From IMG/VR virus record IMGVR_UViG_3300043418_000114, positions 186,001-250,000 of that record: 64,000 nucleotides of DNA; one strand, written 5' to 3'. Position numbers and translations under genes: made by a program. Source of the DNA: a virus. The notes beneath the pieces are model-generated. The model did no database searches and was not told the DNA's origin. It worked only from the letters and a program-made list of their open reading frames with translations. Of the stretch, positions 35,137 through 53,503 are shown in pieces. Numbering within the stretch: position 1 is the stretch's first letter; each line of letters begins with the position of its first letter.

Positions 35137-35808
35137 TTATCTCCAAAGTAAATCAAAGTTGCCAGCTAGTACTTTAGTAGCATTAGCAACTTTACCTGTT
35201 AAGTGATCTTGAACTTTATCATCTTGGAAACGATATGTGCGAATCTTGTCACCGCGCATGCCAGAACCAACCTGAGTCTTTCTATCACTAGCTATTTCGT
35301 TATTGTACATCATTTGGTTATTGCTGTCAACACGTTCTTGTATTGCACTCAATGCTTCGTTATAGCTATTCTCACGGCTACGACATTGAGCCGTTGCAAC
35401 TACGCCGCTTGGGATGTGCGTGATTCTGCAACTGTTTTGATGCTTGTTACGATGTTGACCACCTGCACCAGTGCCACTATACCATTCGATTCGTAAATCT
35501 TTTTGTTGTATAGTTGTTGTGATTTTAGCAGGATCGATAACGGCAACTGTCACTGTGCTTGTATGCACTCGACCTTTGCGTTCTGTTGGCGGTACACGTT
35601 GTATTCTGTGTCCACCTGGCTCGTTGTATAAGCCGGATAAATCAGTACCCTCTATCTCTAGATGGATCTCGCCTTGATGCTCATTTATCAGGCGGGTAGT
35701 TCAGCCGAGCTTGGAAGCCATGCGAATATAAGACTTCGCTAAATCTTTTACAAACAACTTACTGTCATCGCCACCTTCTGCGGCTCTAATCTCAATTACA
35801 CGTTTCAT
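35137..35808 (-). CDS. Class-I release factor (RF1-like) with in-frame TGA
   Basis: Start ATG 35808 after AAAGGAG. The frame encodes IEIRAAEGGDDSKLFVKDLAKSYIRMASKLG, then TGA at 35701-35703 (codon 36), then continues in the same frame: GGHRIQRVPPTERKGRVHTS (RF1-type PxT region), GTGAGGQHRNKHQNS (GGQ peptidyl-hydrolysis loop) and a full C-terminus. The N-terminal domain of bacterial RFs is absent, as in short phage/organellar types. The TGA stands where RFs usually have Trp. Product depends on readthrough, frameshift-free suppression or is broken. Confidence 0.85.
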
Positions 35809-35909: not shown

Positions 35910-36262
35910 GTTGTTTACACTGTCTCACGTTATAGTTTCTGGAAACTACTATTCGTCAACCTAGGGCTTTGTCCGTATCCTGAAATTGGATCGTGTAGTA
36001 GTCCCTATGCACTAAACTACGTTGTGGTTGTAGTCAATACCTCACACATCATAACGACTGTGTGACGCCGGGTTTTAGGTTTGATATGTCACTAAATGCT
36101 CAATCCTGAGAAAGATTTTACGGCATGCCAGCATTTTTTACTGTGAACAGAAGGTGTCTCGGATACTATTTTAAACTTCTTCATATCAAATTAGGGGTTG
36201 AATGATTAGGCTGACTCCTGGGCGTCCCCTGGCTTTATTTAAAGTGACTCACACTCACCTAA
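35910..36262 (-). ncRNA. Gene-free structured RNA region downstream of the Ro-like gene
   Basis: No coding frame. On the minus strand several closed helices follow one another: TGATTAGG/CCTAATCA (8 bp), TTTGATATG/CATATCAAA (9 bp, ~100 nt apart), TCACACA/TGTGTGA (7 bp) and TAGTTT/AAACTA. This looks like a string of small structured RNAs rather than an untranslated tail. Function unknown; Ro-bound RNAs are a possibility given the neighbour. Confidence 0.5.
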
Positions 36263-36273
36263 TCAATCAGTAG

Positions 36274-37695
36274 TTACGACAAGTCGTAACGTGTCTTCAT
36301 CACTGTCTTCAACATGACGGCTTCTGGTGTGAAGTCTTCCAAGTCGTTAGACAATACAGAAGTTGCTAGTGCTGGGCTAAAGCCTGACACTAGTGCAGTA
36401 CCACTCTTATCGAATGACACTGGTGTGTTACCGTAACTTGCGTTCAAGTTCCAGAAGACAACTTTTGGAAGTGCGTAGCCTGCGGCTTCGTACTTACGTG
36501 CGATCATTTGCATCGCGGTGTCGTCATGCTTAACACATTGGTTAAATTGCATGTCTGAGAAGATAACAAGAGTTTCAGGCATTTCTGCTTGTGGAACACT
36601 GTTTTCTGTCGCAGTCTTCAGGATCTTTTCAAACGCCTTGTGAAGGTCTGTACTCATATCCCAGTTAGACTTGACCATTTGGTCAATCTTTTGGTTGATG
36701 TTACCCTTTAGGTGCATCAATTCTGGCTTGCTTGAGAAGGTCAAGAAGGTATCTTTGAACTTACCCTTGTTCTTATCAGCAAAGTACAAACCTAGGCTAA
36801 CAGCAACTTCCATGCAAGACAGGTTGCTCTTAGAGCCATGACCACCTGCTGGACAAGACATTGAACCAGAAACGTCAACCAGAGGAAGAACGTTTGCATC
36901 GCCAACGTAGTTAGGCATTGCTTCCCATTGCTTTTGGATCAAGTCAGTTTCAGTCTTGTTAAACTGCATCCAACCACCAATACGACCCTTCAGTACGTCA
37001 TATGGGAACACTGCGCCTGCGTTAACCTTAACACCAGCTTCGCCCTTAACGAGCTTAGTTACATATTCAGCGTATGTAGTACCATGACGGCCAAACGCTT
37101 TCTTGTAACGTGCATGTGCCACTGAAGGAACATGTGAGTAGTTGATGTTATCCCAATTTTGGGCACACATTTGTGTTTCAACAACATTAGTAAGGCCGAC
37201 TAGGCTCTTACGATATTGTTTAGGGGTCATTCCGAAGAATTGACGGATTTCACGTGCTACTTCACCTTTACGTGGAGTCCACTTAGCCGCAAGACCGTTA
37301 CCTGCACGTAGTGCATCGCCGAGCATAGTGTATGCCTTGGCCTTCACAGGCTGAGTCTTAAACACTAGCAAGTCGTCGTAACGACCCAATTCTGGAATCT
37401 TAGCCATCAAACGCATTGCGTCTTCTGGGTTAGTCTTTTCCAAGTGAACGAGGATGTCTCGGAAGACTTGACGTTCACCTGAACCACCACGTGCATCACG
37501 TGCCCATTGAGCGATACGCAATGCAAGATCAGAGTTCTCTACATAAGCCGCTGTGAAAGCCGGCACGATGTTTTTACCACGGCTTGCACCGATGTTGTAA
37601 AACAAATCAACACATGCGTTAGCACTTGATTTGCGAGCCTTCATACCATTGGTGGTACGAGTTGATTGATTCTTAACTGCTTCTGCGAATTGCAT
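36274..37695 (-). CDS. Ro60/TROVE-like vWA protein (DUF2828 type)
   Basis: 473 aa. Residues ~1-240 are helical repeats resembling the TROVE ring of Ro60 (e.g. NIVPAFTAAYVENSDLALRIAQWARDARGGSGERQVFRDIL, IPELGRYDDLLVF); ~265-470 is a von Willebrand A domain with intact MIDAS DVSGSMS (Asp274, Ser276, Ser278), VIFSDMQFNQC and FWNLN. Ro60 proteins bind Y RNAs and misfolded RNAs and help RNA decay. Structured RNA flanks the gene on both sides, and a sigma-70 promoter lies at 37793. Ribosome site AAAGGAG. Confidence 0.85.
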   Translation of the reverse strand: MQFAEAVKNQSTRTTNGMKARKSSANACVDLFYNIGASRGKNIVPAFTAAYVENSDLALRIAQWARDARGGSGERQVFRDILVHLEKTNPEDAMRLMAKIPELGRYDDLLVFKTQPVKAKAYTMLGDALRAGNGLAAKWTPRKGEVAREIRQFFGMTPKQYRKSLVGLTNVVETQMCAQNWDNINYSHVPSVAHARYKKAFGRHGTTYAEYVTKLVKGEAGVKVNAGAVFPYDVLKGRIGGWMQFNKTETDLIQKQWEAMPNYVGDANVLPLVDVSGSMSCPAGGHGSKSNLSCMEVAVSLGLYFADKNKGKFKDTFLTFSSKPELMHLKGNINQKIDQMVKSNWDMSTDLHKAFEKILKTATENSVPQAEMPETLVIFSDMQFNQCVKHDDTAMQMIARKYEAAGYALPKVVFWNLNASYGNTPVSFDKSGTALVSGFSPALATSVLSNDLEDFTPEAVMLKTVMKTRYDLS

Positions 37696-37721
37696 AGTAA
37701 CTCCTTTCTATGTGTGTTATG

Positions 37722-37789
37722 CAACAGGATGCGCTTTTAGTTTCATCTATGAATTGAAATTTTAAAGTTTGCTGAATGCATCCTAAAAC
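37722..37789 (-). ncRNA. AGGAT/ATCCT-helix RNA element A
   Basis: Minus strand: TTTTAGGATGC-ATTCAGCAA ... GCGCATCCTGTT; 7-bp closing helix AGGATGC/GCATCCT, conserved CAGCAA, internal hairpin TTCAAT/ATGAA-like. It begins at the start site expected for the promoter at 37793 and is therefore the 5' leader of the Ro-like mRNA or a separate RNA. Member of a seven-copy family. Confidence 0.65.
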
Positions 37790-37792
37790 TTG

Positions 37793-37821
37793 ATTGTACT
37801 ACAGTAGTCATTGTATGTCAA
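37793..37821 (-). promoter_or_regulatory. Sigma-70 promoter for the Ro-like gene
   Basis: TTGACA (37821-37816), 17-bp spacer, TACAAT (37798-37793) on the minus strand; transcription would begin at the edge of element A. Confidence 0.82.
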
Positions 37822-37835
37822 CTGTAGTTCGAAAA

Positions 37836-37995
37836 ATAAAACAGGATCGTTGTTGACTGCTTTTTGAATAGGGCCATCACTCCTATTGCGATAGATGCAT
37901 TTCAATAACTACCTTCAAAGTCCGTAGACTCCAGTAGTTACCATGCGATCCATCAGTTCCAATAAAGTAAATTATTGCTGTACCGATCCTAAAAA
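37836..37995 (-). ncRNA. AGGAT/ATCCT-helix RNA element B, multi-branched
   Basis: Closing helix AGGATCG/CGATCCT with CAGCAA next to it. Inside on the minus strand: hairpin CAATAA/TTATTG; an 11-bp stem GATGGAT-C-GCAT/ATGC-ATCTATC with one bulged C, topped by TAACTAC/GTAGTTA; and AATAGG/CCTATT. Three arms on an outer stem give a cloverleaf-like plan. A bulged C in a long helix is a feature of Ro-binding Y RNAs, but the sequence is not the classical one. Confidence 0.6.
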
Positions 37996-38305
37996 TAAAC
38001 GGGATGTTTGAACGTAGTTTATTTTATTGTCTGGTTGAGTCTAACTCACCTTTGCAGGACTTACGTTCCTCAACCATATCAACAATTCATGTTGACTATC
38101 TAGTAATTGAGTCTGCTACTAGCAACATAGAATGTCTTTCCATTCTGTCGTCTATTCCCTGAATGCTTAGTTGCCTAAGAGTATTGCTACTGTCTCCCGA
38201 CCACCTTCTATAGCTGATAGTTTGATTTTTAAATGCTGAACACATCCCAGTCATTCAATACAAGTATTGTATCATCAATACATGTGATTTTAAACTGTTT
38301 TGGGT
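37996..38305 (-). ncRNA. Gene-free structured region upstream of the Ro-like gene
   Basis: No coding frame. Minus-strand helices include TGGTTGAG/CTCAACCA (8 bp), AGAATG/CATTCT, TCAACA/TGTTGA and, at 38252-38265, CAATAC-TT-GTATTG. The last includes a TACAAT with a weak upstream TTTAAA 17 bp away, matching the -10 region of the tRNA-array promoters, so transcription of this region may begin near 38250. Confidence 0.5.
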
Positions 38306-39441: not shown

Positions 39442-39665
39442 TATCGCTTGTTGCCGATGCGCTTTAGATAATCACGGCCGACTAGGCCCTTTTCGATTTC
39501 TTGCAATGCAGTAACAAGATGGCCTGCTTTTGTTGCTAGTTTTGGTCGATGACCACGGGATAATTCACGAGTACGTTGACTTGCGATTAGAATCAAATCA
39601 TATCGATTGCCAACTGCATTAACTGCATCTTCGCTAGTATAGCGAACTCTACTTTCTGTCGTCAT
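39441..39665 (-). CDS. rpoZ: RNA polymerase omega subunit homologue
   Basis: 74 aa. SEDAVNAVGNRYDLILIASQRTRELSRG is the conserved omega core (T/S-x-E-D-A-V-x-x-x-G-N-R-x-D-L-x-L-x-A), followed by TALQEIEKGLVG. Omega wraps the beta' C-terminus and helps polymerase assembly. The homology is convincing; whether it joins the host RNA polymerase or a phage one cannot be seen here. Phage omega homologues are rare outside very large phages. Confidence 0.88.
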   Translation of the reverse strand: MTTESRVRYTSEDAVNAVGNRYDLILIASQRTRELSRGHRPKLATKAGHLVTALQEIEKGLVGRDYLKRIGNKR

Positions 39666-39694: not shown

Positions 39695-39770
39695 TGGAGC
39701 GGGAAAAGGGGCTCGAACCCTCGACCTATACCTTGGCAAGGTATCGCTCTACCAACTGAGCTATTCCCGC
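39695..39770 (-). tRNA. tRNA-Gly(GCC)
   Basis: Minus-strand cloverleaf; anticodon loop TTGCCAA, stems ATACC/GGTAT; acceptor GCGGGAA paired with TTCCCGC, discriminator T and encoded CCA. Ends the minus-strand tRNA array at its low-coordinate side. Confidence 0.97.
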
Positions 39771-39776
39771 ATGTTC

Positions 39777-39851
39777 TGGTACATCGACACGGTTTCGAAC
39801 CGCGGACCCTCTCCGTGTAAAGGAGACGCTCTACCCCTGAGCTATCGATGC
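39777..39851 (-). tRNA. tRNA-Val(TAC)
   Basis: Anticodon loop TTTACAC on TCTCC/GGAGA; acceptor GCATCGA/TCGATGT; ACCA end encoded. Confidence 0.96.
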
Positions 39852-39862
39852 ATATATTCTAT

Positions 39863-40051
39863 TTAGCCACCCTGTTGGCTATCTTTAATTTCTGTTCCCC
39901 AGTCAATTTCCTTCTTGTCATCAGACATATCAGGTAATGGAGGTGGAACGTAACGTTCACGCTTTGGCTTTTCACCAAAGATTTTGTCCATGTTCTCACC
40001 GAATTCTGTAGGACTAATACTAAATGGACGAGGACGAGAACCCTTGCTCAT
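39863..40051 (-). CDS. Small Pro-rich phage protein
   Basis: 62 aa: MSKGSRPRPFSISPTEFGENMDKIFGEKPKRERYVPPPLPDM. Coupled to the next upstream gene (stop overlaps start). Similar short proteins are seen in large phages; function unknown. Confidence 0.68.
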   Translation of the reverse strand: MSKGSRPRPFSISPTEFGENMDKIFGEKPKRERYVPPPLPDMSDDKKEIDWGTEIKDSQQGG

Positions 40052-40218
40052 TACTTAGATTCCTTACGTGAACCCTTCTGACGGGCATCGCTCTCTGCGA
40101 TTTGTGTAAAGCTACGCAAGAATGCGCCACGCTTGTGTGAATCTAGAATTGTTGCAGATGCTATCTTAACTAGCTTGCCTAGCTTCACTGCTTTTGGATC
40201 ATAACCTCTACATGTCAT
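40051..40218 (-). CDS. Small basic protein between tRNA genes
   Basis: 55 aa: MTCRGYDPKAVKLGKLVKIASATILDSHKRGAFLRSFTQ, ending KGSRKESK. AAGGA ribosome site; located just downstream of tRNA-Pro. Function unknown. Confidence 0.66.
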   Translation of the reverse strand: MTCRGYDPKAVKLGKLVKIASATILDSHKRGAFLRSFTQIAESDARQKGSRKESK

Positions 40219-40241
40219 ACTATTTTCCTTTTATGTTAAAT

Positions 40242-40319
40242 TGGTCTCGGTAGTAGGATTCGAACCTACGACCCTCTGCTCCCAAAGCAGATGCGCTAAC
40301 CAGACTGCGCTACACCGAG
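40242..40319 (-). tRNA. tRNA-Pro(TGG)
   Basis: Anticodon loop TTTGGGA on TCTGC/GCAGA; acceptor CTCGGTG/TACCGAG; ACCA encoded. Confidence 0.97.
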
Positions 40320-40325
40320 ATTGTT

Positions 40326-40399
40326 TGGATGCGGGTGACAGATTCGAACTGCCGATGCTCCGAGCTTATGAGACTGGAGTGGTGACCACCCTACCCGCG
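40326..40399 (-). tRNA. tRNA-Met(CAT), initiator-like acceptor
   Basis: Anticodon loop CTCATAA. The acceptor CGCGGGT/ACCCGCA leaves C1 opposite A72, the unpaired 1-72 position typical of initiator tRNA, but the three G-C pairs of the initiator anticodon stem are absent and the D arm is short (GGTG-GTCAC-CACT). TCCA encoded. Confidence 0.85.
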
Positions 40400-40410
40400 T
40401 AAATCGTTTT

Positions 40411-40485
40411 TGGTGCGTGATAGAGGGATCGAACCTCTGACCTTCTCAATGTCACTGAGATATTCTACCGCTGAAATAATCACGC
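40411..40485 (-). tRNA. tRNA-Val(GAC)
   Basis: Anticodon loop GTGACAT on TCTCA/TGAGA; acceptor GCGTGAT/ATCACGC; ACCA encoded. Confidence 0.93.
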
Positions 40486-40488
40486 ATT

Positions 40489-40613
40489 TTAACAGGTTCT
40501 CTTTTTTCGTGCTACCACTACACCAACGCGAAGACCAACTCGCGCCTGGGATTCGAACCCAGCCCCTCTTTTTTACAGAAAGATTATTAAGATTGCTGAA
40601 AAGAACCTAATGG
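40489..40613 (-). ncRNA. RNA element G: permuted tRNA(GTA) body in an AGGTTC/GAACCT helix
   Basis: Minus strand order: outer helix AGGTTC(TTTT), CAGCAA, anticodon-type hairpin TCTTT-CTGTAAA-AAAGA (anticodon GTA), T arm CTGGG-TTCGAAT-CCCAG, 3' acceptor GCGCGAG, 6-nt loop, 5' acceptor TTCGCGT, D arm GTG-TAGTGGTAG-CAC, then GAACCT closing the helix. The 3' half of a tRNA thus precedes its 5' half, and the acceptor strands pair over 7 bp. Either a permuted tRNA or a Y-RNA-like tRNA mimic. Confidence 0.7.
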
Positions 40614-40620
40614 TCAAACT

Positions 40621-40696
40621 TGGTGGAGGTGACAGGACTCGAACCCGCTACCTATTGCTTGCAAAGCAACCGCTCTCCCAGGTGAGCTACACCCCC
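40621..40696 (-). tRNA. tRNA-Ala(TGC)
   Basis: Anticodon loop TTTGCAA; acceptor GGGGGTG/CACCTCC; ACCA encoded. Confidence 0.96.
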
Positions 40697-40771
40697 GAAA
40701 TTTGTTACACACTACTTATCTCATTATACGCCATGTGTAAGGGCGAGGCTTCTAACTCTTTCGAGTTTTGT

Positions 40772-40848
40772 TGGTGCGGATGGTGGGACTCGAACCCACA
40801 AAATTTGGCTTCTAAGACCAACACGTATACCAATTCCATCACATCCGC
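40772..40848 (-). tRNA. tRNA-Leu(TAG), short variable arm
   Basis: Anticodon loop CTTAGAA on TTGGT/GCCAA; Leu-type D arm (GATGGAATTGGTA). The variable region is only ATTTT instead of the long class-II arm normal for tRNA-Leu. ACCA encoded. Confidence 0.92.
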
Positions 40849-40857
40849 GTAATTCTA

Positions 40858-40940
40858 TTTATACTGAAACACACTAACCAAGTCTCCTAACCTGTATCAA
40901 CTGCCCCACTTGTGCAGTTATCAATGCGTTTTAGTATAAA
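40858..40940 (-). ncRNA. Inverted-repeat RNA, AAACAC/GTGTTT family
   Basis: TTTATACTGAAACAC pairs with GCGTTTTAGTATAAA (13 of 15). Inside on the minus strand: hairpins AACTGC/GCAGTT and CAGGT/ACTTG. One of several similar elements between tRNA genes. Confidence 0.5.
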
Positions 40941-41118
40941 GGCTATCAGAGGCTTGCCATCGCCCTTAGGTTATACTGATATTACTCGTTGAAATATACC
41001 GAAGTATAGAGTTGGATTCAACAAGACCCTACTACTCACCTAAACTCATGTAGTCTGTAACGCATCATCATGAAGGGTCCAGCGACCTCTATCGTTACAG
41101 CATCTGGTTACATTCTTT
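40941..41118 (-). ncRNA. Structured non-coding stretch
   Basis: No gene. Minus strand has TATAC-TTCG-GTATA, a UUCG-capped hairpin (about 40996-41009), and CTGTAACG/CGTTACAG closing a ~48-nt loop (41057-41100). Confidence 0.4.
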
Positions 41119-41200
41119 CTATACTGAAACACACTGACTCTCCAGTATTTCTACTTTCGCCGAGTTTGACCGCGTAGTCGTGCAATGTGTTTTAGTATAG
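41119..41200 (-). ncRNA. Inverted-repeat RNA, AAACACA/TGTGTTT family
   Basis: CTATACTGAAACACA pairs with TGTGTTTTAGTATAG (14 of 15) around a ~52-nt interior with a GACT/AGTC helix. Confidence 0.55.
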
Positions 41201-42083
41201 TGGAGCACTGAGAATACATGCTTACCGAGTAACACCTCAGACATTATTACAATCCTTGCGAGACTGCTTTCTTCTGACTTCCACTGCAACCTCTTGCGAG
41301 TATCACAGTCTGTTACCAACATCGCCGTTTTAAGTCAGGCATTAGACTTGACGCTGTATGCTATTCTACGCTTTCTATCCCGTTGACCTTTAGAGCCATT
41401 CACTACCGCTAAGTAGTTACGAAACTTCCTGCATAAACAGATTTCACCTTGCGAGTTACGTCTGACTGGATTATCTTGCGACTCCAGTATTAGATGCTTT
41501 TCACATACAACCGAGACAGACTTTGCTTTTTTAATCGATAGAAGGGATCGAACCTTCAGCCGACTGCTTGAAAATGCAGTTGATCTACCATTGATCTATA
41601 TCAACCTACTGTGATGTGCTGTCTCAGTTGCTTCATAATCTTTTGGACTACAAAATACAACACGCCACGTACCTTTTGTCTCGCGGACTACTCAGTCGTC
41701 TTTCACGATTAATGTCGGGTCTCGGCTTTCGCGTACCTCCATCAACCATTCAAACTGCATTACAACTCTTAGATGCGACTCCTCGAATCATAACACTACC
41801 CTTTCTCATACCAATTAACTGGACTGGTTTTGTCGTGAGGTCAGCACCACCTGTTACTCTCTAATGACTTGCGTTACCCTCGATATTATCTCAGGCGCTT
41901 AAGCCACTAATTCTTTCCACAACTTCCAGCGTCATTGTTATCACCACCGGTCTTATCAGTGATGAAACCCTCGCGGGTTTGAGCAGGCTTGCTTAGATGA
42001 ACTATTTCTAGCGCGGGTCTGTAGGAGACTACCGCTTTGGGCCGATCACTCGGCTTATTCTAATGAGGCTAAGCCCCCATAAA
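41201..42083 (-). ncRNA. Large gene-free structured RNA region with an embedded tRNA
   Basis: About 880 nt without a credible gene. The minus strand repeats CTCGCAAG three times plus GTCGCAAG (41255-41490), has GNRA-capped hairpins AAACCC-GCGA-GGGTTT (41965-41980) and GCCGA-GTGA-TCGGC (42042-42055), and encloses a tRNA (41533-41605) in a GAGACAG/CTGTCTC helix. Size, tRNA neighbourhood and an internal tRNA recall the GOLLD RNA class; this is a hypothesis. Confidence 0.45.
41533..41605 (-). tRNA. tRNA-Glu(TTC)-like with 8-nt anticodon loop
   Basis: Acceptor GTTGATA/TATCGAT, D arm GATC/GATC, T arm GAAGG-TTCGATC-CCTTC are good. The anticodon stem ACTGC/GCAGT closes an 8-nt loop ATTTTCAA instead of 7, so TTC is the likeliest reading but not certain. 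CCA is not encoded. Lies inside an outer GAGACAG/CTGTCTC helix. Confidence 0.75.
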
Positions 42084-42200
42084 TTCTTATACTCGCATAC
42101 ACTTGCAATATTGAAATTGCCTACCGGAAGGATATCTCACATCCAGCTGTGTCCGCTCACATCCGTATGGCCTATACGTTTATGTATGCGAGTATAAGAA
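42084..42200 (-). ncRNA. Inverted-repeat RNA with an 18-bp perfect stem
   Basis: TTCTTATACTCGCATACA pairs perfectly with TGTATGCGAGTATAAGAA; the interior contains CGTAT/ATACG, GGAT/ATCC and GCAAT/ATTGC hairpins on the minus strand. Confidence 0.6.
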
Positions 42201-42212
42201 CTACTTTCTTAA

Positions 42213-42301
42213 CATTGTTGAACATACTAGTGCATTTCCAAATTATGCTACTCCTCATCAGGGATGGAATCGAACCAACATCCCTAATACATTCAACAAT
42301 G
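42213..42301 (-). ncRNA. tRNA-like element in permuted order, 10-bp closing helix
   Basis: CATTGTTGAA/TTCAACAATG close the element. On the minus strand a T-arm-like GTTGG-TTCGATT-CCATC is followed by a D-arm-like GCAT-AATTTGGAA-ATGC; the acceptor between them is reduced to CCT/AGG. It has the same permuted order as elements D and G but is degenerate. Confidence 0.45.
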
Positions 42302-42323
42302 CTAAGAAAATTCTTAGCAATAA

Positions 42324-42394
42324 TTTTTTAAAGAACATCACTGATTTCTCAGTGTCAATACAAGTATTGTATAAGGTTTTTAATTCACTGTCAA
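42324..42394 (-). promoter_or_regulatory. rRNA-operon-like promoter and antitermination leader 1
   Basis: Minus strand: TTGACA (42394-42389), 17-bp spacer, TACAAT (42371-42366), then boxB-like hairpin CACTGA-GAAA-TCAGTG (42354-42339) and boxA-like TGTTCTTTAAA (42337-42327). The same order stands at 46332 and 46121. It drives the gene-poor RNA region and tRNAs below 42.3 kb. Confidence 0.82.
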
Positions 42395-42424
42395 CAACTT
42401 TTTTAAGATTGTTAACCATTTTAT

Positions 42425-42500
42425 TGGAGCGGGAGGCGGGAGTCGAACCCGTCTATTTCAGTTTGGAAGACTAACGTGTAACCACAAACACTTCACCCGC
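42425..42500 (-). tRNA. tRNA-Gly(TCC)
   Basis: Anticodon loop CTTCCAA; acceptor GCGGGTG/CTCCCGC; TCCA encoded. Its 5' edge touches the late promoter of the plus-strand gene at 42513. Confidence 0.95.
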
Positions 42501-42512
42501 ATAAATAACTTT
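42501..42512 (+). promoter_or_regulatory. T4-like late promoter abutting a start codon
   Basis: CATAAATAACTTT immediately before the ATG at 42513; the transcript would carry almost no leader. Confidence 0.5.
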
Positions 42513-42677
42513 ATGCATATCTATGACGCTATCACAAACTCTGGATTACACATCCACTTGTCCATGAGCGCCGATAATACATTTTACATTCTAGTATACG
42601 ACATTGATAACTTCATGTTAACTATGAAATTTTTCAACAATGTAGATACTGCAATGCAATTTATCCATTCACTATGA
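42513..42677 (+). CDS. Small hypothetical late protein
   Basis: 54 aa: MHIYDAITNSGLHIHLSMSADNTFYILVYDIDNF... FIHSL. Plus strand, opposite to the surrounding tRNA genes, with a late-type promoter 5 nt upstream and no Shine-Dalgarno. Stop overlaps the next start (ATGA). Function unknown. Confidence 0.6.
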   Translation: MHIYDAITNSGLHIHLSMSADNTFYILVYDIDNFMLTMKFFNNVDTAMQFIHSL

Positions 42678-42865
42678 GTAGCCCAACAGATTACGAAATC
42701 TTATATAGATTAAACACTAGTCCATATGCAGAGACTAAGAGTTGGGTACTGCCTAATACATTCAAAGCAATGTTCTCAAATGAGAACTTACCTGAATTTG
42801 TTATTGATGAACTATTAAAGAAACAGACGTTTAAATTAGACGATCAGTTTCCTCAATACAAATAA
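42674..42865 (+). CDS. Small hypothetical late protein
   Basis: 63 aa: MSSPTDYEILYRLNTSPYAETKSWVLPNTFKAMFSNENLPEFVIDELLKKQTFKLDDQFPQYK. Second gene of the small late unit inserted between tRNA genes. Function unknown. Confidence 0.68.
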   Translation: MSSPTDYEILYRLNTSPYAETKSWVLPNTFKAMFSNENLPEFVIDELLKKQTFKLDDQFPQYK

Positions 42866-42867
42866 TC

Positions 42868-42943
42868 TGGCATCCCGGGAGGGATTTGAACCCCCAACTT
42901 ACGGTTTTGGAGACCGTTGCTCTGCCAATTGAACTACCGAGAT
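42868..42943 (-). tRNA. tRNA-Trp(CCA)
   Basis: Anticodon loop CTCCAAA on ACGGT/ACCGT; acceptor ATCTCGG/CCGGGAT; GCCA encoded. D-stem position 24 is G, so it is not the Hirsh-type UGA suppressor form. Confidence 0.97.
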
Positions 42944-42947
42944 ATAT

Positions 42948-43013
42948 AAAACAGGATGCTTATTTTTCAATTAAAAGTTGAATTATAAGATGTTGCTGGA
43001 CGCATCCTAAAAC
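42948..43013 (-). ncRNA. AGGAT/ATCCT-helix RNA element C
   Basis: Minus strand TTTTAGGATGCGTCCAGCAA ... GCATCCTGTTTT; closing helix AGGATGC/GCATCCT, conserved CAGCAA, inner hairpin TTCAA/TTGAA. Lies between tRNA-Trp and tRNA-Ser. Confidence 0.62.
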
Positions 43014-43014
43014 T

Positions 43015-43104
43015 TGGCGGAAACGGTGAGATTCGAACTCACGGACCCTTTGAAAGATCGCCGGTTTTCAAGACCGGAGCCATAGACCACTCGACCACGT
43101 TTCC
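43015..43104 (-). tRNA. tRNA-Ser(TGA)
   Basis: Anticodon loop CTTGAAA on CCGGT/ACCGG; long class-II variable arm; acceptor GGAAACG/CGTTTCC; GCCA encoded. Confidence 0.97.
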
Positions 43105-43117
43105 ATTAAAATATTTA

Positions 43118-43203
43118 TACCATATGTAAACACACTAGCGTTTTTCACTAAACTACAACTTGACTGGACTTGACCAGTGACTCTATTGTGCTTGCATATG
43201 GTG
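43118..43203 (-). ncRNA. Inverted-repeat RNA, AAACACA/TGTGTTT family
   Basis: TACCATATGTAAACACA pairs with TGTGCTTGCATATGGTG; the interior on the minus strand contains ACTGG/CCAGT. Confidence 0.52.
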
Positions 43204-43312
43204 ACAGTTTAGTCCGATAACTGCCAAGAGTTGTGGTGATCCGGCACACCTTTTATGTATAAGTTGACTACAAGAGGCTTATACACTAGGGCCTTCACGT
43301 TGCCCTATTTTT
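43204..43312 (-). ncRNA. Short structured stretch
   Basis: No gene. Hairpins CAGTT/AACTG and GTATAAG/CTTATAC (7 bp, 43256-43283) are visible. Confidence 0.35.
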
Positions 43313-43442
43313 TAATACCATATAGAAACACACTGTCGTTTCTCTTTCCAGTCTAGACAACCTCGCTTACGAAGCACGATTATATCACAGGATTACGCAT
43401 CCTGCTCGTCACTGTACTCAAGCAATGTGTTTTTATATGGTA
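43313..43442 (-). ncRNA. Inverted-repeat RNA, AAACACA/TGTGTTT family
   Basis: ACCATATAGAAACACA pairs with TGTGTTTTTATATGGT (15 of 16). The interior holds AGGAT/ATCCT and GCTT/AAGC hairpins. One strand runs into the CCA end of tRNA-Lys. Confidence 0.52.
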
Positions 43443-43512
43443 GGGGCACAGGGAATCGAACCCTGATAGACCGGTTAAAAGCCGGATATTCTAGCCGTTG
43501 AATTATACCCCC
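43438..43512 (-). tRNA. tRNA-Lys(TTT)
   Basis: Anticodon loop CTTTTAA on CCGG/CCGG; acceptor GGGGGTA/TGCCCCT; ACCA encoded. Confidence 0.95.
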
Positions 43513-43515
43513 ATA

Positions 43516-43590
43516 TGGTCCCAGTGCTGAGATTCGAACTCAGTTCTCTCGGCTTAAGAGGCCGGACTTCACCTTCAAAGTTTCTCTGGG
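43516..43590 (-). tRNA. tRNA-Lys(CTT)
   Basis: Anticodon loop CTCTTAA on CGGC/GCCG; acceptor CCCAGAG/CACTGGG with one A-A mismatch; D arm ACTT/AAGT; ACCA encoded. Confidence 0.9.
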
Positions 43591-43689
43591 ATGGATCGTA
43601 AGAAATTTTCTTTTACGTGCCATCTGAGACCATACGGGGGTCAAAGATGACACTATCGTTTACCTGAACGTTTCATGTCATTTACCTTT

Positions 43690-44046
43690 TTAAGATTTAA
43701 GTGCTTTTAAAATATTATCCCAAGATTCAGTTGGATTATGACCTTGATCTAGCAAGGCAACATAAGTCTTAACTGCATCTTCTGGAATCTTGAAATAGAT
43801 GTTTGCGTAGGTGCAGTCGAATGAATCATCTTCATCACGAACGTACCATGGATGACTTGACATTTCATCAAATACATCTTCATAGTCTTCACGATTGCCA
43901 CCACCATTACGTGTGTGAACAACAATGTGACCATCTTCTACATAAACATCACGAAAGCGACCGAAGTCACCTTTTGTTTTATCTAACAGACTCAGGAGTT
44001 GATCCGAGTTAGGGTTAGTGCCAAACATCATGTTATACAAACTCAT
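43690..44046 (-). CDS. Conserved T4-type phage protein
   Basis: 118 aa from ATG 44046 (AAAGGAG). FGRFRDVYVEDGHIVVHTRNGGGNREDYEDVFDEMSSHPWYVRDEDDSFDCTYANIYFKIPEDA is a pattern repeated in many T4-type phages. Inserted between tRNA genes. Function unknown. Confidence 0.78.
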   Translation of the reverse strand: MSLYNMMFGTNPNSDQLLSLLDKTKGDFGRFRDVYVEDGHIVVHTRNGGGNREDYEDVFDEMSSHPWYVRDEDDSFDCTYANIYFKIPEDAVKTYVALLDQGHNPTESWDNILKALKS

Positions 44047-44144
44047 TTCATTCTCCTTTGTTAATTTGTGGAAGTTCCGATAGCACCCATCGTCACTTAC
44101 AACCGTTGAGTAGCCTTGCATCAAAACAGTGCTACTATTTGCTC

Positions 44145-44219
44145 TGGAGGACAGGATAGGAATCAAACCTACCTAGAACGGATTTGCAATCCGCCACATA
44201 ATCGCTCTGTCACCTGTCC
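44145..44219 (-). tRNA. tRNA-Cys(GCA)
   Basis: Anticodon loop TTGCAAA on GCGGA/TCCGT; acceptor GGACAGG/CCTGTCC; TCCA encoded. Confidence 0.96.
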
Positions 44220-44228
44220 ATATTTTGT

Positions 44229-44316
44229 TGGCGGAGCATGTAGGAATCGAACCTACTCACCTCTTTCGAAATGATGGATTAGCAATCCATTGCCTTAACC
44301 GGTCGGCCAATGCTCC
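44229..44316 (-). tRNA. tRNA-Ser(GCT)
   Basis: Anticodon loop TTGCTAA on TGGA/TCCA; class-II variable arm; acceptor GGAGCAT/ATGCTCC; GCCA encoded. Confidence 0.97.
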
Positions 44317-44345
44317 GTAAAATATCTGATTAAAAATCATAAAAT

Positions 44346-44486
44346 AGTGTATTCAGCTGGCAGACTGCAACAAGATACTATCCTCTAATATATTAGTATC
44401 ACAGTGATATTAAGTTCCGGACCCTAATATCACCAAAGTCTGGCAAATAAGATATATAAATTCAAAGTTTATTAAATGAATACACT
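44346..44486 (-). ncRNA. Structured RNA with nested helices and two hairpins
   Basis: Closing helix AGTGTATTCA/TGAATACACT (10 bp perfect), then CAGACT/AGTCTG, enclosing GATACTA/TAGTATC and GTGATATTA/TAATATCAC (9 bp). The perfect nesting over 140 nt without any gene is strong evidence of a folded RNA. Not recognised. Confidence 0.65.
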
Positions 44487-44499
44487 AATTTATGATTTT

Positions 44500-44576
44500 T
44501 GGTGGGCCCAACAGGACTCGAACCTGTGGCCAAGGAATTATGAGTTCCCTGCTCTAACCAACTGAGCTATAGGCCC
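44500..44576 (-). tRNA. tRNA-Met or Ile2 (CAT)
   Basis: Anticodon loop CTCATAA on GGAA/TTCC; acceptor GGGCCTA/TGGGCCC; ACCA encoded. Body could be elongator Met or Ile2 whose C34 is lysidine-modified; sequence alone does not decide. Confidence 0.93.
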
Positions 44577-44591
44577 ATAATCTAAAACCAT

Positions 44592-44619
44592 ATTATAATA
44601 CACTCCCAATGCATGTCAA
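44592..44619 (-). promoter_or_regulatory. Sigma-70 type promoter
   Basis: TTGACA (44619-44614), 16-bp spacer, TATAAT (44597-44592) on the minus strand, upstream of tRNA-Met/Ile2 and tRNA-Ser(GCT). Confidence 0.75.
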
Positions 44620-44633
44620 GCACTGTAACTTCA

Positions 44634-44707
44634 TGGTACATCTTGAACCACAGTTTCGAACCTGTGAAATGTAGCACTATCTAGTATCAACTCTTTCGAA
44701 TTCAAAA
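44634..44707 (-). tRNA. tRNA-like element, anticodon not recognisable
   Basis: T arm CACAG-GTTCGAA-CTGTG and an 8-bp acceptor TTTTGAAT/GTTCAAGA are visible, followed by TGTACCA; the D and anticodon arms do not fold normally. A decayed tRNA or tRNA mimic. Confidence 0.4.
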
Positions 44708-44762
44708 CATACTAGACCCGGCAAGCTGGGGCCTCTATATATGACAAGAGTATACTATAATA

Positions 44763-44849
44763 TGGTGCGGGTGGCCGGAATCGAACCGGCACGGTGTCTC
44801 CACCGACGGATTTTAAGTCCGTTACGTCTACCTATTTCATCACACCCGC
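44763..44849 (-). tRNA. tRNA-Leu(TAA)
   Basis: Anticodon loop CTTAAAA on ACGGA/TCCGT; normal long variable arm; acceptor GCGGGTG/CACCCGC; ACCA encoded. Confidence 0.97.
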
Positions 44850-44856
44850 ATATTAC

Positions 44857-44933
44857 TGGCGCCTCGTAGGGGACTCGAACCCCTGGCCTCTTGCGTGACA
44901 GGCAAGCGATCTAACCAACTGAGCTAACGAAGC
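44857..44933 (-). tRNA. tRNA-Asp(GTC)
   Basis: Anticodon loop CTGTCAC on CTTGC/GCAAG; acceptor GCTTCGT/ACGAGGC; GCCA encoded. Confidence 0.96.
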
Positions 44934-44938
44934 GTAAA

Positions 44939-45014
44939 TGGTGGGCTATCGCGGATTCAAACCACGCAACAACTCTATGTTGTAGAGTTAGGATTTCCAA
45001 TCACTCTAAAGCCT
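44939..45014 (-). tRNA. tRNA-like element with CCA end, atypical arms
   Basis: 3' end is tRNA-like: T arm CGTGG-TTTGAAT-CCGCG, ATAGCCC, ACCA. The 5' side AGGCTTT pairs at 5 of 7 positions. The middle hairpin ACTCT-ACAACAT-AGAGT has no T at position 33, so no anticodon can be assigned. Degenerate tRNA or mimic. Confidence 0.45.
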
Positions 45015-45139
45015 ATAAATTCATCACCGTTGACGTTTTACCATTGAAAGACACGGTGCCATCTGTCTCAGTCGCATTACCTATCACCCCATGCTCGGAT
45101 TCATAGATAGGCATTCTACTGATAATTCAATGTTTATCT
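45015..45139 (-). ncRNA. Structured stretch with a D-arm-like hairpin
   Basis: No gene. CACCGT/ACGGTG closes a hairpin with a D-loop-like CAATGGTA; CTATC/GATAG lies beyond it, and CTGTCTCAGTCGC repeats a motif seen at 41621. Confidence 0.35.
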
Positions 45140-45226
45140 TGGTGGATGCGGCTGGAGTTGAACCAGCAGTGCCTTTCGGGCGGCGGGTTTACAGCCCGCT
45201 GGGGTTACCAATTTTCCTACACATCC
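45140..45226 (-). tRNA. tRNA-Tyr(GTA)
   Basis: Anticodon loop CTGTAAA on CGGG/CCCG; class-II variable arm; acceptor GGATGTG/CGCATCC; ACCA encoded. Confidence 0.96.
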
Positions 45227-45227
45227 A

Positions 45228-45656
45228 TTATTTGTTTTTGCCACACCAAGTGTCAGTCTGTGAATGACAATTGGGACAGAGTAATCTTAAGTTTTTAAAC
45301 TTGTGATTGTGATTATCGCCGTCTATGTGATCTAAATGTAGAGAAATTTCTTTTCCCATCCATTCTTCTAATCCACACGACGAGCATTTGTTATCTAATA
45401 TTTTTTCTTTTAACAAACGCTTTTTCAGTTTTAGTGTTTGATATGTAGGATGCAATCCTTCTAGAATTTCATTCAACTCTATCTTCTTTGCACCACCACC
45501 TATCTTAAAATCTAAACCTAATCTTTTTGCTCTACGCCAAACTGTAACATCTGGCACATTAAAATAATGTGCTAACTTGCTCAAGACTGGCGTAATGTTA
45601 TACTGTTCTATCAATTCAGTATCTGTAAACTTTTCTGTACTATGTTTTTGTTTCAT
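45228..45656 (-). CDS. HNH homing-type endonuclease
   Basis: 142 aa. N-terminal helix-turn-helix-like PVLSKLAHYFNVPDVTVWRRAKRLG; CSSCGLEEW ... ISLHLDHIDGDNHNHKFKNLRLLCPNCHSQT is an HNH nuclease with CxxC pairs. Sits 1 nt from tRNA-Tyr inside the array and starts 4 nt after a CATAAATA late-type element without a Shine-Dalgarno. Probably a selfish endonuclease. Confidence 0.9.
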   Translation of the reverse strand: MKQKHSTEKFTDTELIEQYNITPVLSKLAHYFNVPDVTVWRRAKRLGLDFKIGGGAKKIELNEILEGLHPTYQTLKLKKRLLKEKILDNKCSSCGLEEWMGKEISLHLDHIDGDNHNHKFKNLRLLCPNCHSQTDTWCGKNK

Positions 45657-45660
45657 ACAG

Positions 45661-45670
45661 TATTTATGAA
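45661..45670 (-). promoter_or_regulatory. T4-like late promoter abutting a start codon
   Basis: Minus strand CATAAATA, then CTGT and the ATG at 45656. Confidence 0.45.
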
Positions 45671-45699
45671 AAGTTAGATATGAAATCTAAAAATAAACT

Positions 45700-45776
45700 T
45701 GGTGCCCCCAGCGGGACTCGAACCCGCAGAATCTTGATTTTGAGTCAAGCACGTATACCAATTCCATCACAAGGGC
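45700..45776 (-). tRNA. tRNA-Leu(CAA), short variable arm
   Basis: Anticodon loop CTCAAAA on CTTGA/TCAAG; variable region only ATTCT; acceptor GCCCTTG/TGGGGGC; ACCA encoded. Confidence 0.93.
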
Positions 45777-45813
45777 AAAAAGAAACATACTAGCGATCTA
45801 CTGTTGTTGTGAT

Positions 45814-45875
45814 TGAACACAGGACTTAGTATAAGTCGTCCCAACTCCGCATCTTTTTAACACAAGTCCTGCGGT
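45814..45875 (-). ncRNA. Inverted-repeat element CAGGACTT/AAGTCCTG
   Basis: An 8-bp perfect closing helix around ~45 nt between tRNA-Leu(CAA) and tRNA-Glu. It recalls the AGGAT-helix family but lacks the CAGCAA motif. Confidence 0.4.
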
Positions 45876-45904
45876 TGCTTGTGAGCTAATATATTTCAAA
45901 AACT

Positions 45905-45980
45905 TGGTACTCCGTATGGGAATCGAACCCATCTTACCAACGTGAAAGGCTGGTGTCCTAAACCGATAGACGAACGGAGC
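45905..45980 (-). tRNA. tRNA-Glu(TTC)
   Basis: Anticodon loop CTTTCAC on CCAGC/GTTGG; acceptor GCTCCGT/ACGGAGT; ACCA encoded. Confidence 0.96.
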
Positions 45981-45989
45981 ATAGTTATT

Positions 45990-46106
45990 CACTATATGTA
46001 AACACAAAAGCAATACTAACCGGGCGGTCGATATCGGCGTTAGCCAAGTCACTTACCCAGACTTTCAAACTAATGTGCTTACATATAGTGACTGCTTCAC
46101 AGCAGT
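45990..46106 (-). ncRNA. Inverted-repeat RNA plus adjacent hairpin
   Basis: CACTATATGTAAACACA pairs with TGTGCTTACATATAGTG (45990-46090, 15 of 17); next to it ACTGCT-TCAC-AGCAGT (46091-46106). First RNA downstream of promoter 2. Confidence 0.55.
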
Positions 46107-46120
46107 GTATATGTTGGTTG

Positions 46121-46192
46121 TTTTTTTAAAGAACAGTGCTGATTTCTCAGCGTCAATACATGTATTGTATAACATGTTTGAATCATTGTCAA
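46121..46192 (-). promoter_or_regulatory. rRNA-operon-like promoter and antitermination leader 2
   Basis: Minus strand TTGACA (46192-46187), 17-bp spacer, TACAAT (46169-46164), boxB-like GCTGA-GAAA-TCAGC (46151-46138), boxA-like TGTTCTTTAAA (46136-46126). Drives tRNA-Glu, Leu, Tyr and beyond. Confidence 0.85.
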
Positions 46193-46201
46193 ACTATTTT
46201 T

Positions 46202-46314
46202 AAGTATTTTAGATGGATTCGAACCATCGTTTCACTGGCGATTCCCACCATACAGTTACTATGACTTCACTGTGTGGGCCCTTGCGTCCTAAGCCCCTAG
46301 ACGATAAGACACTT
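46202..46314 (-). tRNA. Large tRNA-like RNA with a long middle arm
   Basis: T arm GATGG-TTCGAAT-CCATC, D arm CGTC/GACG and a ~9-10-bp acceptor AAGTGTC-TTA/TAA-AATACTT (one mismatch). In place of a normal anticodon arm there is a ~10-bp stem CCCAC-ACAGT/ACTGT..GTGGG with a 12-nt loop. First RNA after promoter 3; no CCA encoded. tRNA mimic or tRNA with insertion. Confidence 0.45.
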
Positions 46315-46331
46315 AGAAATAGTCTGACAAA

Positions 46332-46400
46332 TTGTTAAAGAACAGTGATTGATTTCTCAATCGATACACGTATTGTATGCGAGTTTTTATTTAGTGTCAA
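46332..46400 (-). promoter_or_regulatory. rRNA-operon-like promoter and antitermination leader 3
   Basis: Minus strand TTGACA (46400-46395), 17-bp spacer, TACAAT (46377-46372), boxB-like GATTGA-GAAA-TCAATC (46362-46347), boxA-like TGTTCTTTAACAATT. The last motif is very close to proteobacterial rrn boxA leaders. Confidence 0.87.
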
Positions 46401-46445
46401 GCGTTTCCTAAAATATTTTGATAAATAGTTAAAAGGAACCCCAAA

Positions 46446-46943
46446 ATGAAAAAGTACGCAACATTAAGCATTGATAGCTCAACTCTAGCAACTGAAATCA
46501 TGACATATTTGAAATCTTCAATCGATGTTGAGGATAACGATCATCATATCCATGCATTTCACGTGTTAAATTTGACTGATCTTGCCAACACTACACTCAA
46601 CACTACGTTTACCGGATTAACCGCAAAATTCGTGGGGCATTTGACAATCAATGGCAGTCAAATGTTTAATCATTGCTATGATTCTGCATTTATGCTTATT
46701 CCATTGGAAGATTGTGAATCAACAGTGGTTAAGATTTTTGACGTTGCTCCTGGCGCAGTATTTAATCCAACTGACTCTTGCTACATGGACCAAGACTGCA
46801 CACTAGCAAATGCATTGCCACTTACATCACCTATTGTGATTAGTGCGAATACAACTCACACCATTGAAACAACCAACTTCACAAAACTAGCAGATGTGTT
46901 AATGATCATCTTCAATGAAGATGTATCAACGTTACTAGCTTAA
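46446..46943 (+). CDS. Hypothetical late protein
   Basis: 165 aa, beta-rich and neutral: KKYATLSIDSSTLATEIMTYLKSS, FTGLTAKFVGHLTINGSQMFNH, ISANTTHTIETTNF. Plus strand, opposite to the tRNA genes; GATAAATAG late-type element and AAAAGGAA ribosome site upstream. Probably a virion or assembly protein; not recognised. Stop lies 1 nt before the tRNA-Arg 3' end. Confidence 0.72.
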   Translation: MKKYATLSIDSSTLATEIMTYLKSSIDVEDNDHHIHAFHVLNLTDLANTTLNTTFTGLTAKFVGHLTINGSQMFNHCYDSAFMLIPLEDCESTVVKIFDVAPGAVFNPTDSCYMDQDCTLANALPLTSPIVISANTTHTIETTNFTKLADVLMIIFNEDVSTLLA

Positions 46944-46944
46944 G

Positions 46945-47019
46945 TGGTCCGGCGTAGTGGAATCGAACCACTATAATCACTTTAGAAGAATGATGTCCTA
47001 TCCGTTGAACGAACGCCAG
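46945..47019 (-). tRNA. tRNA-Arg(TCT)
   Basis: Anticodon loop CTTCTAA on TCATT/AGTGA; acceptor CTGGCGT/ACGCCGG; ACCA encoded. Confidence 0.95.
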
Positions 47020-47028
47020 ATAACTGAT

Positions 47029-47057
47029 AGCATATCACAATAAAAAGAAAAAGTCAA
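47029..47057 (-). promoter_or_regulatory. Sigma-70 type promoter
   Basis: TTGACT (47057-47052), 17-bp spacer, TATGCT (47034-47029) on the minus strand, just before tRNA-Arg(TCT). Overlaps the terminator hairpin. Confidence 0.65.
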
Positions 47058-47083
47058 GAGATTTTTAGTTTCTTGACTTTTTT
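47049..47083. terminator. Hairpin terminator between tRNA-Asn and tRNA-Arg
   Basis: AAAAGTCAAGA ... TCTTGACTTTTTT: 9-10-bp hairpin with T-run. Its arm contains the -35 box of the promoter at 47029, an economical terminator/promoter overlap. Confidence 0.7.
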
Positions 47084-47086
47084 GTT

Positions 47087-47162: not shown

Positions 47163-47169
47163 ATAAATG

Positions 47170-47244: not shown

Positions 47245-47262
47245 ATAATTTTATTTATAGTG

Positions 47263-52026: not shown

Positions 52027-52146
52027 TGGCGCCGCCGGAGGGATTCGAACCCCCATCTCTTCCTTGACATGGAATTTTTATATGCTGAACGTACTCTGTA
52101 CAGAGTCACTTTTTATAAGTGTCCTGATCCATTAGACGACAGCGGC
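52027..52146 (-). tRNA. tRNA-Asp(GTC)-like with insertion before the anticodon arm
   Basis: Acceptor GCCGCTG/CGGCGGC, D arm GTC-TAATGGATCAG-GAC, anticodon hairpin TTCC-ATGTCAA-GGAA and T arm GGGGG-TTCGAAT-CCCTC with GCCA end. About 45 nt are inserted between D and anticodon arms, containing hairpins CACTT/AAGTG and ACTCT/AGAGT. Could be an intron or a tRNA mimic. Confidence 0.72.
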
Positions 52147-52506: not shown

Positions 52507-52574
52507 ATAAAACAGGATGCGTTTTTGCTTTTTACCAATAAAAGTTTTTTTAATTGCTGAATGCATCCTAAAAA
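52507..52574 (-). ncRNA. AGGAT/ATCCT-helix RNA element E
   Basis: Minus strand TTTTAGGATGCATTCAGCAA ... GCATCCTGTTTTATTT; closing helix AGGATGC/GCATCCT as in elements A and C. Directly follows the terminator at 52575. Confidence 0.62.
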
Positions 52575-53397: not shown

Positions 53398-53503
53398 ATA
53401 ACAGGATAGTTGTTTTGCAGGGGGAATTGAACCCCCAAGGTTTGATTAGAAGTCAAATTGTGAACCGTTCACATGCGTATTGTTTGCTGTAACTATCCTA
53501 AAA
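53398..53503 (-). ncRNA. RNA element F: tRNA(TCT)-like cloverleaf in an AGGATAGTT/AACTATCCT helix
   Basis: The 9-bp closing helix and ACAGCAA motif place it in the AGGAT family. Inside, in normal order: D-arm-like GTG-AACGGTT-CAC, anticodon-type TTTGA-CTTCTAA-TCAAA (TCT), T arm GGGGG-TTCAATT-CCCCC. The tRNA acceptor is reduced to GCA/TGC and replaced by the outer helix; no CCA. Arg(TCT) mimic. Confidence 0.65.

What the first reader, a model, noticed from the sequence alone, without database searches (positions are those of the whole stretch)
35910..38305. RNA-rich surroundings of the Ro-like gene
About 350 nt downstream and 600 nt upstream of the gene are free of coding frames and full of closed helices; elements A and B of the AGGAT family are in the upstream part, and element A begins at the predicted transcription start. 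Bacterial Ro genes are typically next to their Y RNAs.
Basis: partly seen in the sequence, partly recalled or inferred. Interest (0 to 1): 0.7.

Follow-up and report, generated by a model that had tools for sequence, protein, structure and literature searches.

The report
Phage Y RNAs displaying anticodon loops
A giant phage carries, beside its gene for a Ro-like RNA-binding protein and throughout its tRNA cluster, a family of small RNAs that share one end-stem and mostly mimic tRNAs or only their anticodon loops; distantly related phages that carry the same protein gene carry the same kind of RNA, so the two most likely form one particle.

Summary
Upstream of the Ro-like gene (36274-37695, minus strand) lie three RNA elements in a row (C, B, A), not two. 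All share a frame: a 7-bp end stem, then CAGCAA, an insert, an A-rich strand and the stem's other half, then GUU. The window has eight framed elements plus one tRNA gene holding the same parts as an insert in its anticodon stem. In 1.67 Mb of related DNA I found 553 elements against 9 in reversed controls, with strong stem covariation. Short inserts are anticodon stem-loops (120 of 235; 3.6 in shuffles). Longer ones are circularly permuted or acceptor-less tRNAs, some scoring as Rfam YrlA (Y RNA-like) below its cut-off. Of 30 records picked by element DNA alone, 25 hold the Ro-like gene; 1 of 24 tRNA-rich controls does. Twelve of 13 isolated phages with the gene have the element (E<=0.001), several beside it. 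The Y RNA reading is therefore well supported by comparison, though binding is untested. The downstream 350 nt folds no better than shuffles and has no framed element. Likely role: Ro-bound tRNA mimics acting as anticodon decoys or tethers; splicing into circles is the main rival. The short elements share their frame with Dictyostelium Class I RNAs.

The parts
36274..37695 (-). Ro-like protein gene, 473 aa: Pfam DUF2828 + DUF7788 (vWA-like; DxSGSM motif at 274-279 invariant), PHROG 850 'RNA-binding protein'
   Evidence: full-length matches to mycobacteriophage 'Ro-like RNA binding protein', E about 1e-60
37726..37784 (-). Element A: framed RNA, leader of the Ro-like gene; insert resembles an anticodon arm with loop UUCAUAG (CAU) behind a mismatched pair
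   Evidence: CM R1 66 bits; equivalent element in 47 of 48 related loci
37793..37821 (-). Sigma-70-like promoter TTGACA-17-TACAAT for element A and the Ro-like gene
   Evidence: similar hexamers visible at this place in several relatives
37843..37990 (-). Element B: framed RNA, 148 nt, compact multi-helix insert without tRNA look
   Evidence: z -5.0; aligned in 16 loci
38001..38248 (-).
   Evidence: z -2.5; homologues in many loci
40494..40608 (-). Framed element with circularly permuted tRNA (closed acceptor stem, anticodon loop CUGUAAA = GUA)
   Evidence: z -2.8
42953..43008 (-). Framed element with lone anticodon stem-loop UUCAA-CUUUUAA-UUGAA (UUU)
   Evidence: R1 69 bits
51912..52021 (-). 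Framed element with permuted tRNA-like module of YrlA type (no anticodon loop)
   Evidence: YrlA 31.3 bits, E 0.002, at 51909-52021; z -4.6
52027..52146 (-). tRNA-Asp (GUC) gene with encoded CCA whose anticodon stem is interrupted by about 44 nt carrying the same stem (closed by a loop) and UUCAGCA, i.e. the frame in the opposite order
52514..52569 (-). Framed element, short, anticodon-arm-like insert (loop AUUGGUA)
   Evidence: R1 70 bits; Dicty_Class_I_RNA 34.5 bits, E 0.0024, below cut-off
53403..53499 (-). Framed element with tRNA body that has only a 3-bp acceptor stem (anticodon loop CUUCUAA = UCU)
   Evidence: z -3.3
42206..42305 (-). Second Y RNA-like candidate of classical YrlA type (long stem, permuted tRNA-like module, no CAGCAA frame)
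   Evidence: 32.3 bits, E 0.001 (cut-off 69)

Best explanation
The elements are the phage's Y RNAs. The Ro-like protein binds the shared frame (end stem + CAGCAA + A-rich strand), and each insert is a module displayed on the particle. Most modules mimic tRNA: lone anticodon stem-loops, tRNA bodies with a stub acceptor stem, or permuted tRNAs with a closed acceptor. None of these forms can be charged or used in translation as it stands. The same frame also occurs in reverse order inside the anticodon stem of intact tRNA genes, which gives the same fold with different ends. Most likely role: the particles hold or mimic anticodon arms as decoys (or tethers) for enzymes that act on anticodon loops, above all host anticodon nucleases; element A in the leader may also let the protein sense its own level. 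Shown by comparison: frame, covariation, module types, co-occurrence with the gene. Inferred: binding. Hypothesis (about 0.35): the decoy role.
For: Frame: 553 elements against 9 in reversed DNA; two stem positions left out of the selection pair in 275 of 287 (shuffles mean 56, maximum 80). Co-occurrence with the gene: 25/30 against 1/24; CM R1 hits in 12 of 13 gene-bearing isolates at E <= 0.001 and, of 24 controls, only the gene-bearing one. Adjacency: 47/48 loci; next to the gene in phages JoeDirt, P100plus, CP81, BUCT-ZZ01, LAh_9 and within 1 kb in Felix-like DE7. tRNA mimicry: 120/235 perfect 5-bp/7-nt loops with U33 and R37 against 3.6; YrlA up to 48.9 bits, E 6e-8. Redundancy: the anticodons readable in the window's elements are all present on ordinary tRNAs of the cluster. 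Bias: UUU, UGU, UCU, GUU are 60% of displayed loops but 12.5% of tRNAs. Published idea that the YrlA tRNA-like domain may competitively inhibit an anticodon nuclease (PMC7790460); PARIS cleaves tRNA-Lys (PMC11455837).
Against: No binding data. YrlA scores stay below the Rfam cut-off of 69 bits. Elements B and C show no tRNA likeness. In several isolates (KVP40, BF, DLP_6, OC, Ci1) R1 hits lie 7 kb to about 200 kb from the gene, and Vibrio phage D480 has only a weak hit (E 0.056). Intact CCA ends and good anticodons in the interrupted tRNA genes are better explained by splicing.
Confidence: 0.72

Rival explanations
1. The frame is a tiny intron. In tRNA genes it is removed to give a normal tRNA; in the framed elements the two intron halves sit at the ends (permuted intron-exon), so removal would yield circular RNAs: circular anticodon arms and permuted tRNAs.
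For: 17 interrupted tRNAs with encoded 3' ends, mostly CCA, and 7-bp acceptors regain a 5-bp anticodon stem and U33 loop when 41-51 nt are removed from one strand of the stem; permuted L012 and L013 regain CUCCG/CGGAG and CUCGC/GCGAG on joining (sequences). RtcB lies near the gene in Listeria phage P100plus.
Against: The same base pairs form without joining. No RtcB in any of 23 element-bearing records, including this phage; RNA ligase PF09414 over cut-off in only 8 and Rnl1 in 4, none in this phage, though a host ligase is possible. The anticodon supplied (Asp GUC) is already encoded twice. The insertion point varies along the stem.
Confidence: 0.2
2. Elements are anticodon-arm decoys or sponges acting on their own, the end stem being only a protective clamp, and the Ro-like gene is a fellow traveller of tRNA-rich phages.
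For: Strong bias of displayed anticodons; lone anticodon arms.
Against: tRNA-rich controls lack both gene and elements; elements adjoin the gene in unrelated phages; B and C display no anticodon.
Confidence: 0.1
3. Elements are processing or transcription signals of the tRNA operon (spacer hairpins, mobile repeats) without a function as RNAs.
For: Many lie directly behind a tRNA CCA end.
Against: Sequence-specific CAGCAA, covarying stem, insert types conserved by position, anticodon loops, linkage to one protein family.
Confidence: 0.05

Closest known systems
Bacterial Y RNAs / YrlA (Rfam RF02553) with Ro60/Rsr
   Same: Encoded next to a Ro-type gene; ends paired in a stem; circularly permuted tRNA-like module with closed acceptor; some elements align end to end with the YrlA model. 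From memory: Chen et al. 2014 (cited in PMC7790460) reported Y RNAs near Ro60 in more than 250 bacterial and phage species.
   Different: Below the Rfam cut-off; shared CAGCAA/A-rich frame; many copies spread through the tRNA array; modules that keep a real anticodon loop or are only an anticodon arm; the reversed arrangement inside tRNA genes; DUF2828/DUF7788 protein instead of a TROVE match.
Dictyostelium Class I RNAs (Rfam RF01414)
   Same: 42-65 nt, short covarying end stem, conserved motif on the 5' side (CAGCAA in the Rfam consensus), variable insert, start AAG, end CUGU (PMC7919456); phage elements score up to 36.7 bits, E 0.003.
   Different: Below the cut-off of 41.5 bits; eukaryotic, from own promoters; known partner is an RRM protein, no Ro-like partner known; anticodon arms not described.
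Permuted or intron-containing tRNA genes of algae and archaea
   Same: tRNA halves in reversed order or a break in the anticodon region (own knowledge).
   Different: No bulge-helix-bulge motif recognised; very short closed acceptor loops; the same frame carries non-tRNA inserts.
Phage tRNAs resistant to anticodon nucleases (e.g. T5 tRNA-Lys against PARIS, PMC11455837)
   Same: Proposed target, the anticodon-loop attack of host defences.
   Different: Those are working tRNAs; the framed elements cannot be charged as they stand.

Membership tests
Y RNA | Encoded beside a Ro-type gene | tested here: met
   47/48 related loci; next to the gene in several unrelated isolates
Y RNA | 5' and 3' ends paired in a stem | tested here: met
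   covariation
Y RNA (bacterial) | tRNA-like module in at least one member per genome | tested here: met
   window 40494, 51912, 53403; YrlA alignment over the full model
Rfam YrlA RF02553 | Score above gathering cut-off (69 bits) | tested here: not met
   29.6-48.9 bits
Y RNA | Bound by the Ro protein | not testable with these tools
   needs pull-down
Ro60/Rsr protein | TROVE HEAT-repeat ring, PF05731 | tested here: inconclusive
Ro60/Rsr protein | C-terminal vWA domain | tested here: met
   DUF7788 strong; VWA_2 in 18 of 30 members and vWA_Ro60 in 10 of 30, both weak; DxSGSM invariant
Dictyostelium Class I RNA RF01414 | Score above gathering cut-off (41.5 bits) | tested here: not met
   26-36.7 bits
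Self-splicing or spliced tRNA intron | Exons joined in the mature RNA | not testable with these tools
   no RNA data
Spliced by a phage ligase | RtcB or RNA ligase in the genome | tested here: not met
   none in this phage record

The most novel reading that the evidence does not exclude
A widespread Ro-like/Y RNA system of tRNA-rich phages presents isolated anticodon stem-loops on a common protein-binding frame as decoys for host anticodon-loop enzymes, and the same RNA frame, orphan until now, underlies the Class I RNAs of social amoebae, whose unknown partner would then be a DUF2828-type Ro-like protein.
Probability: 0.2. Interest if true: 0.93.

Novelty: new variant of a known kind. Interest (0 to 1): 0.78.

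Why it matters
It offers an RNA partner for a widespread phage Ro-like protein (680 of 50,697 phage records hold a match) and shows Y RNAs whose module is an anticodon arm, which makes the open question of what bacterial Y RNAs do directly testable in laboratory phages such as JoeDirt or a Felix-O1-like phage. If the frame shared with Dictyostelium Class I RNAs is homologous, it also suggests a partner for that orphan class.

Tried and rejected
AGGAT as a motif by itself: not enriched; in other phages the stem letters differ (AGACC, GAGCG, GGTAC) while CAGCAA stays. Y RNAs in the downstream 350 nt: no frame, no excess structure. RtcB or RNA ligase as obligate partner: absent here and in most element records. 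Solved-structure homologues of the protein: none. ARAGORN intron mode gave mostly false joins of neighbouring tRNAs; I used the motif instead. About a dozen further interrupted-tRNA candidates of the Tyr type could not be resolved by my script. CUA 'anticodons' in the short elements are a separate hairpin class (GUUGUC-UAGC-GACAA), left out of the statistics. Literature on phage permuted tRNAs or anticodon-arm RNAs: nothing found in the held library; the key Y RNA papers are not held.

Full report
What was claimed.

Checking the observation. The upstream 600 nt are non-coding and hold three elements in a row: C 38001-38248, B 37843-37990 and A 37726-37784. Each is closed by a 7-bp stem, followed on the 5' side by two or three letters and CAGCA(A), ends in an A-rich stretch and the other half of the stem, and is followed by GUU. 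A near-consensus sigma-70 promoter lies at 37821-37793, so element A is the leader of the gene. B and C fold better than shuffled sequence, A only weakly. The downstream 369 nt do not (z -0.52) and lack the frame.

Is it more than chance? AGGAT alone is not. The frame is: 553 elements (447 unique) in 1.67 Mb of window and related loci against 9 in the reversed sequence. In a test that used only the constant letters, both free stem positions paired in 275 of 287 elements; shuffled partners gave 56 on average and 80 at most. The alignment of 35 short elements shows covariation in both helices, but those had been selected for pairing, so one search is the fair test.

What is inside the frame. Elements up to 72 nt mostly hold a lone anticodon stem-loop: 120 of 235 have a perfect 5-bp stem, a 7-nt loop, U33 and a purine at 37, against 3.6 in shuffled inserts. 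The letters at 34-36 are far from random: UUU 22.5%, UGU 20%, UCU 9.2%, GGA 8.3%, GUU 8.3% of displayed loops, against 2.6, 3.8, 2.7, 1.0 and 3.4% of ordinary tRNAs in the same loci. Inserts of about 97 nt are tRNA bodies with a 3-bp acceptor stub (window 53403-53499). Inserts of about 115 nt are circularly permuted tRNAs: T arm and acceptor first, a short closed acceptor loop, then the D arm (window 40494-40608; 51912-52021 lacks an anticodon loop). Inserts of 130-250 nt (B, C) show no tRNA likeness. In the window, the anticodons readable in the elements (CAU, UGG, UUU, GUA, UCU; GUC in the interrupted tRNA) are all also carried by ordinary tRNAs of the cluster, so these are extra copies.

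The same parts in reverse order. About thirty tRNA genes in the related loci and isolates hold, in the 5' strand of the anticodon stem, an insert made of the A-rich strand, the stem closed by a short loop, and CAGCA. Seventeen were resolved: removal of 41-51 nt restores the anticodon stem, the acceptors are 7 bp, and nearly all have an encoded CCA. One is in the window, a tRNA-Asp (GUC) at 52027-52146. Geometrically this is the same fold as the permuted elements (a tRNA with the stem arm rising from the anticodon stem), with the free ends at the acceptor instead of at the stem. This can be read as selection for that fold, or as an intron and its permuted form.

Link to the Ro-like gene. In IMG/VR, 47 of 48 loci of the protein family have a framed element within 130 nt of its start codon, none in the reversed control. 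In the opposite direction, 30 records of at least 50 kb chosen only by the element's DNA pattern include 25 with the gene; 24 tRNA-rich records chosen by a plain tRNA pattern include 1; Fisher p 2e-9. A covariance model of the short element (R1) searched in whole records found 12 of 13 isolated phages with the gene at E <= 0.001 (Synechococcus, Citrobacter, Cronobacter, Stenotrophomonas, Aeromonas, Serratia, Vibrio KVP40, a Felix-O1-like phage, Mycobacterium, Listeria, Campylobacter, Ochrobactrum), the thirteenth (Vibrio D480) weakly, and of the 24 controls only the one that has the gene. In JoeDirt, P100plus, CP81, BUCT-ZZ01 and LAh_9 the elements adjoin the gene, in DE7 they lie within 1 kb. 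Their stem letters differ entirely while CAGCAA and the A-rich strand stay. A metagenome-assembled Gastranaerophilales contig with a 33%-identical protein shows the same arrangement.

The protein. DUF2828 and DUF7788 are strong; vWA_Ro60 is marginal; no TROVE match. PHROG 850 calls it an RNA-binding protein; mycobacteriophage homologues are annotated Ro-like; one GenBank record notes HHpred similarity to Deinococcus Rsr. Ro-like is therefore reasonable but not proven here.

Comparison with what is known. Rfam YrlA aligns over its full length to permuted elements (48.9 bits, E 6e-8 in L069; 31.3 bits in the window; cut-off 69). From memory, Chen et al. 2014 reported Y RNAs near Ro60 in bacteria and phages and showed that they mimic tRNA, so phage Y RNAs as such are not new. 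New, as far as the held library shows, are the common CAGCAA frame, the anticodon-arm modules with their biased anticodons, the spread through tRNA arrays, the tRNA genes carrying the closed frame, and the near-identity of the frame with Dictyostelium Class I RNAs: start AAG, stem, motif with CAGCAA, variable insert, end CUGU (for the model letters; PMC7919456; scores up to 36.7 bits against a cut-off of 41.5). That last link may be convergence.

Mechanism. I commit to a phage Ro/Y RNA particle (0.72). For its job, the decoy reading has most behind it: the tRNA-like modules cannot be charged as they stand, most keep the anticodon loop, the anticodons are biased and redundant, a published suggestion exists that YrlA's tRNA-like domain competes for an anticodon nuclease (PMC7790460), and PARIS attacks tRNA-Lys (PMC11455837). 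It remains a hypothesis (about 0.35); tethering of tRNA enzymes or RNases, as for bacterial Y RNA and PNPase (PMC7790460), is the alternative within the same frame.

Noticed in passing
window 35140-35808 (-), next gene downstream of the Ro-like gene: Release-factor (RF1-like, GGQ) gene with a single in-frame TGA (ASKLG*TTRLI); the same in-frame stop is kept in L007, L149 and L008, suggesting a recoded or regulatory UGA.
   Followed up: partly
window 41205-41668 (-): GOLLD RNA (203.5 bits) with a tRNA-like gene inside it (41532-41606), in the same tRNA cluster.
   Followed up: no
window 42206-42305 (-): Separate classical YrlA-like RNA candidate with a long stem and no CAGCAA frame (32.3 bits).
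   Followed up: partly
window 39444-39665 (-): Phage gene for an RNA polymerase omega-like subunit (RpoZ/Rpb6).
   Followed up: no
window 39695-54882 (-): Cluster of about 45 tRNA genes on one strand in a 364 kb virus record; three sub-threshold tRNA-Sec-like matches at 48688-48775, 50830-50903 and 54054-54138.
   Followed up: no
L014 987-1049, L043 2700-2759, L132 and others: A distinct short-element class with GCUA...GUUGUC-UAGC-GACAA, which could form a pseudoknot, in place of an anticodon arm.
   Followed up: no
L021 1137-1256, L023, L027, L029: Framed elements whose insert (ACGGCUAAUACCCGU...GAUAACUUC) recalls a piece of 16S rRNA in permuted order; by eye only (sequences).
   Followed up: no
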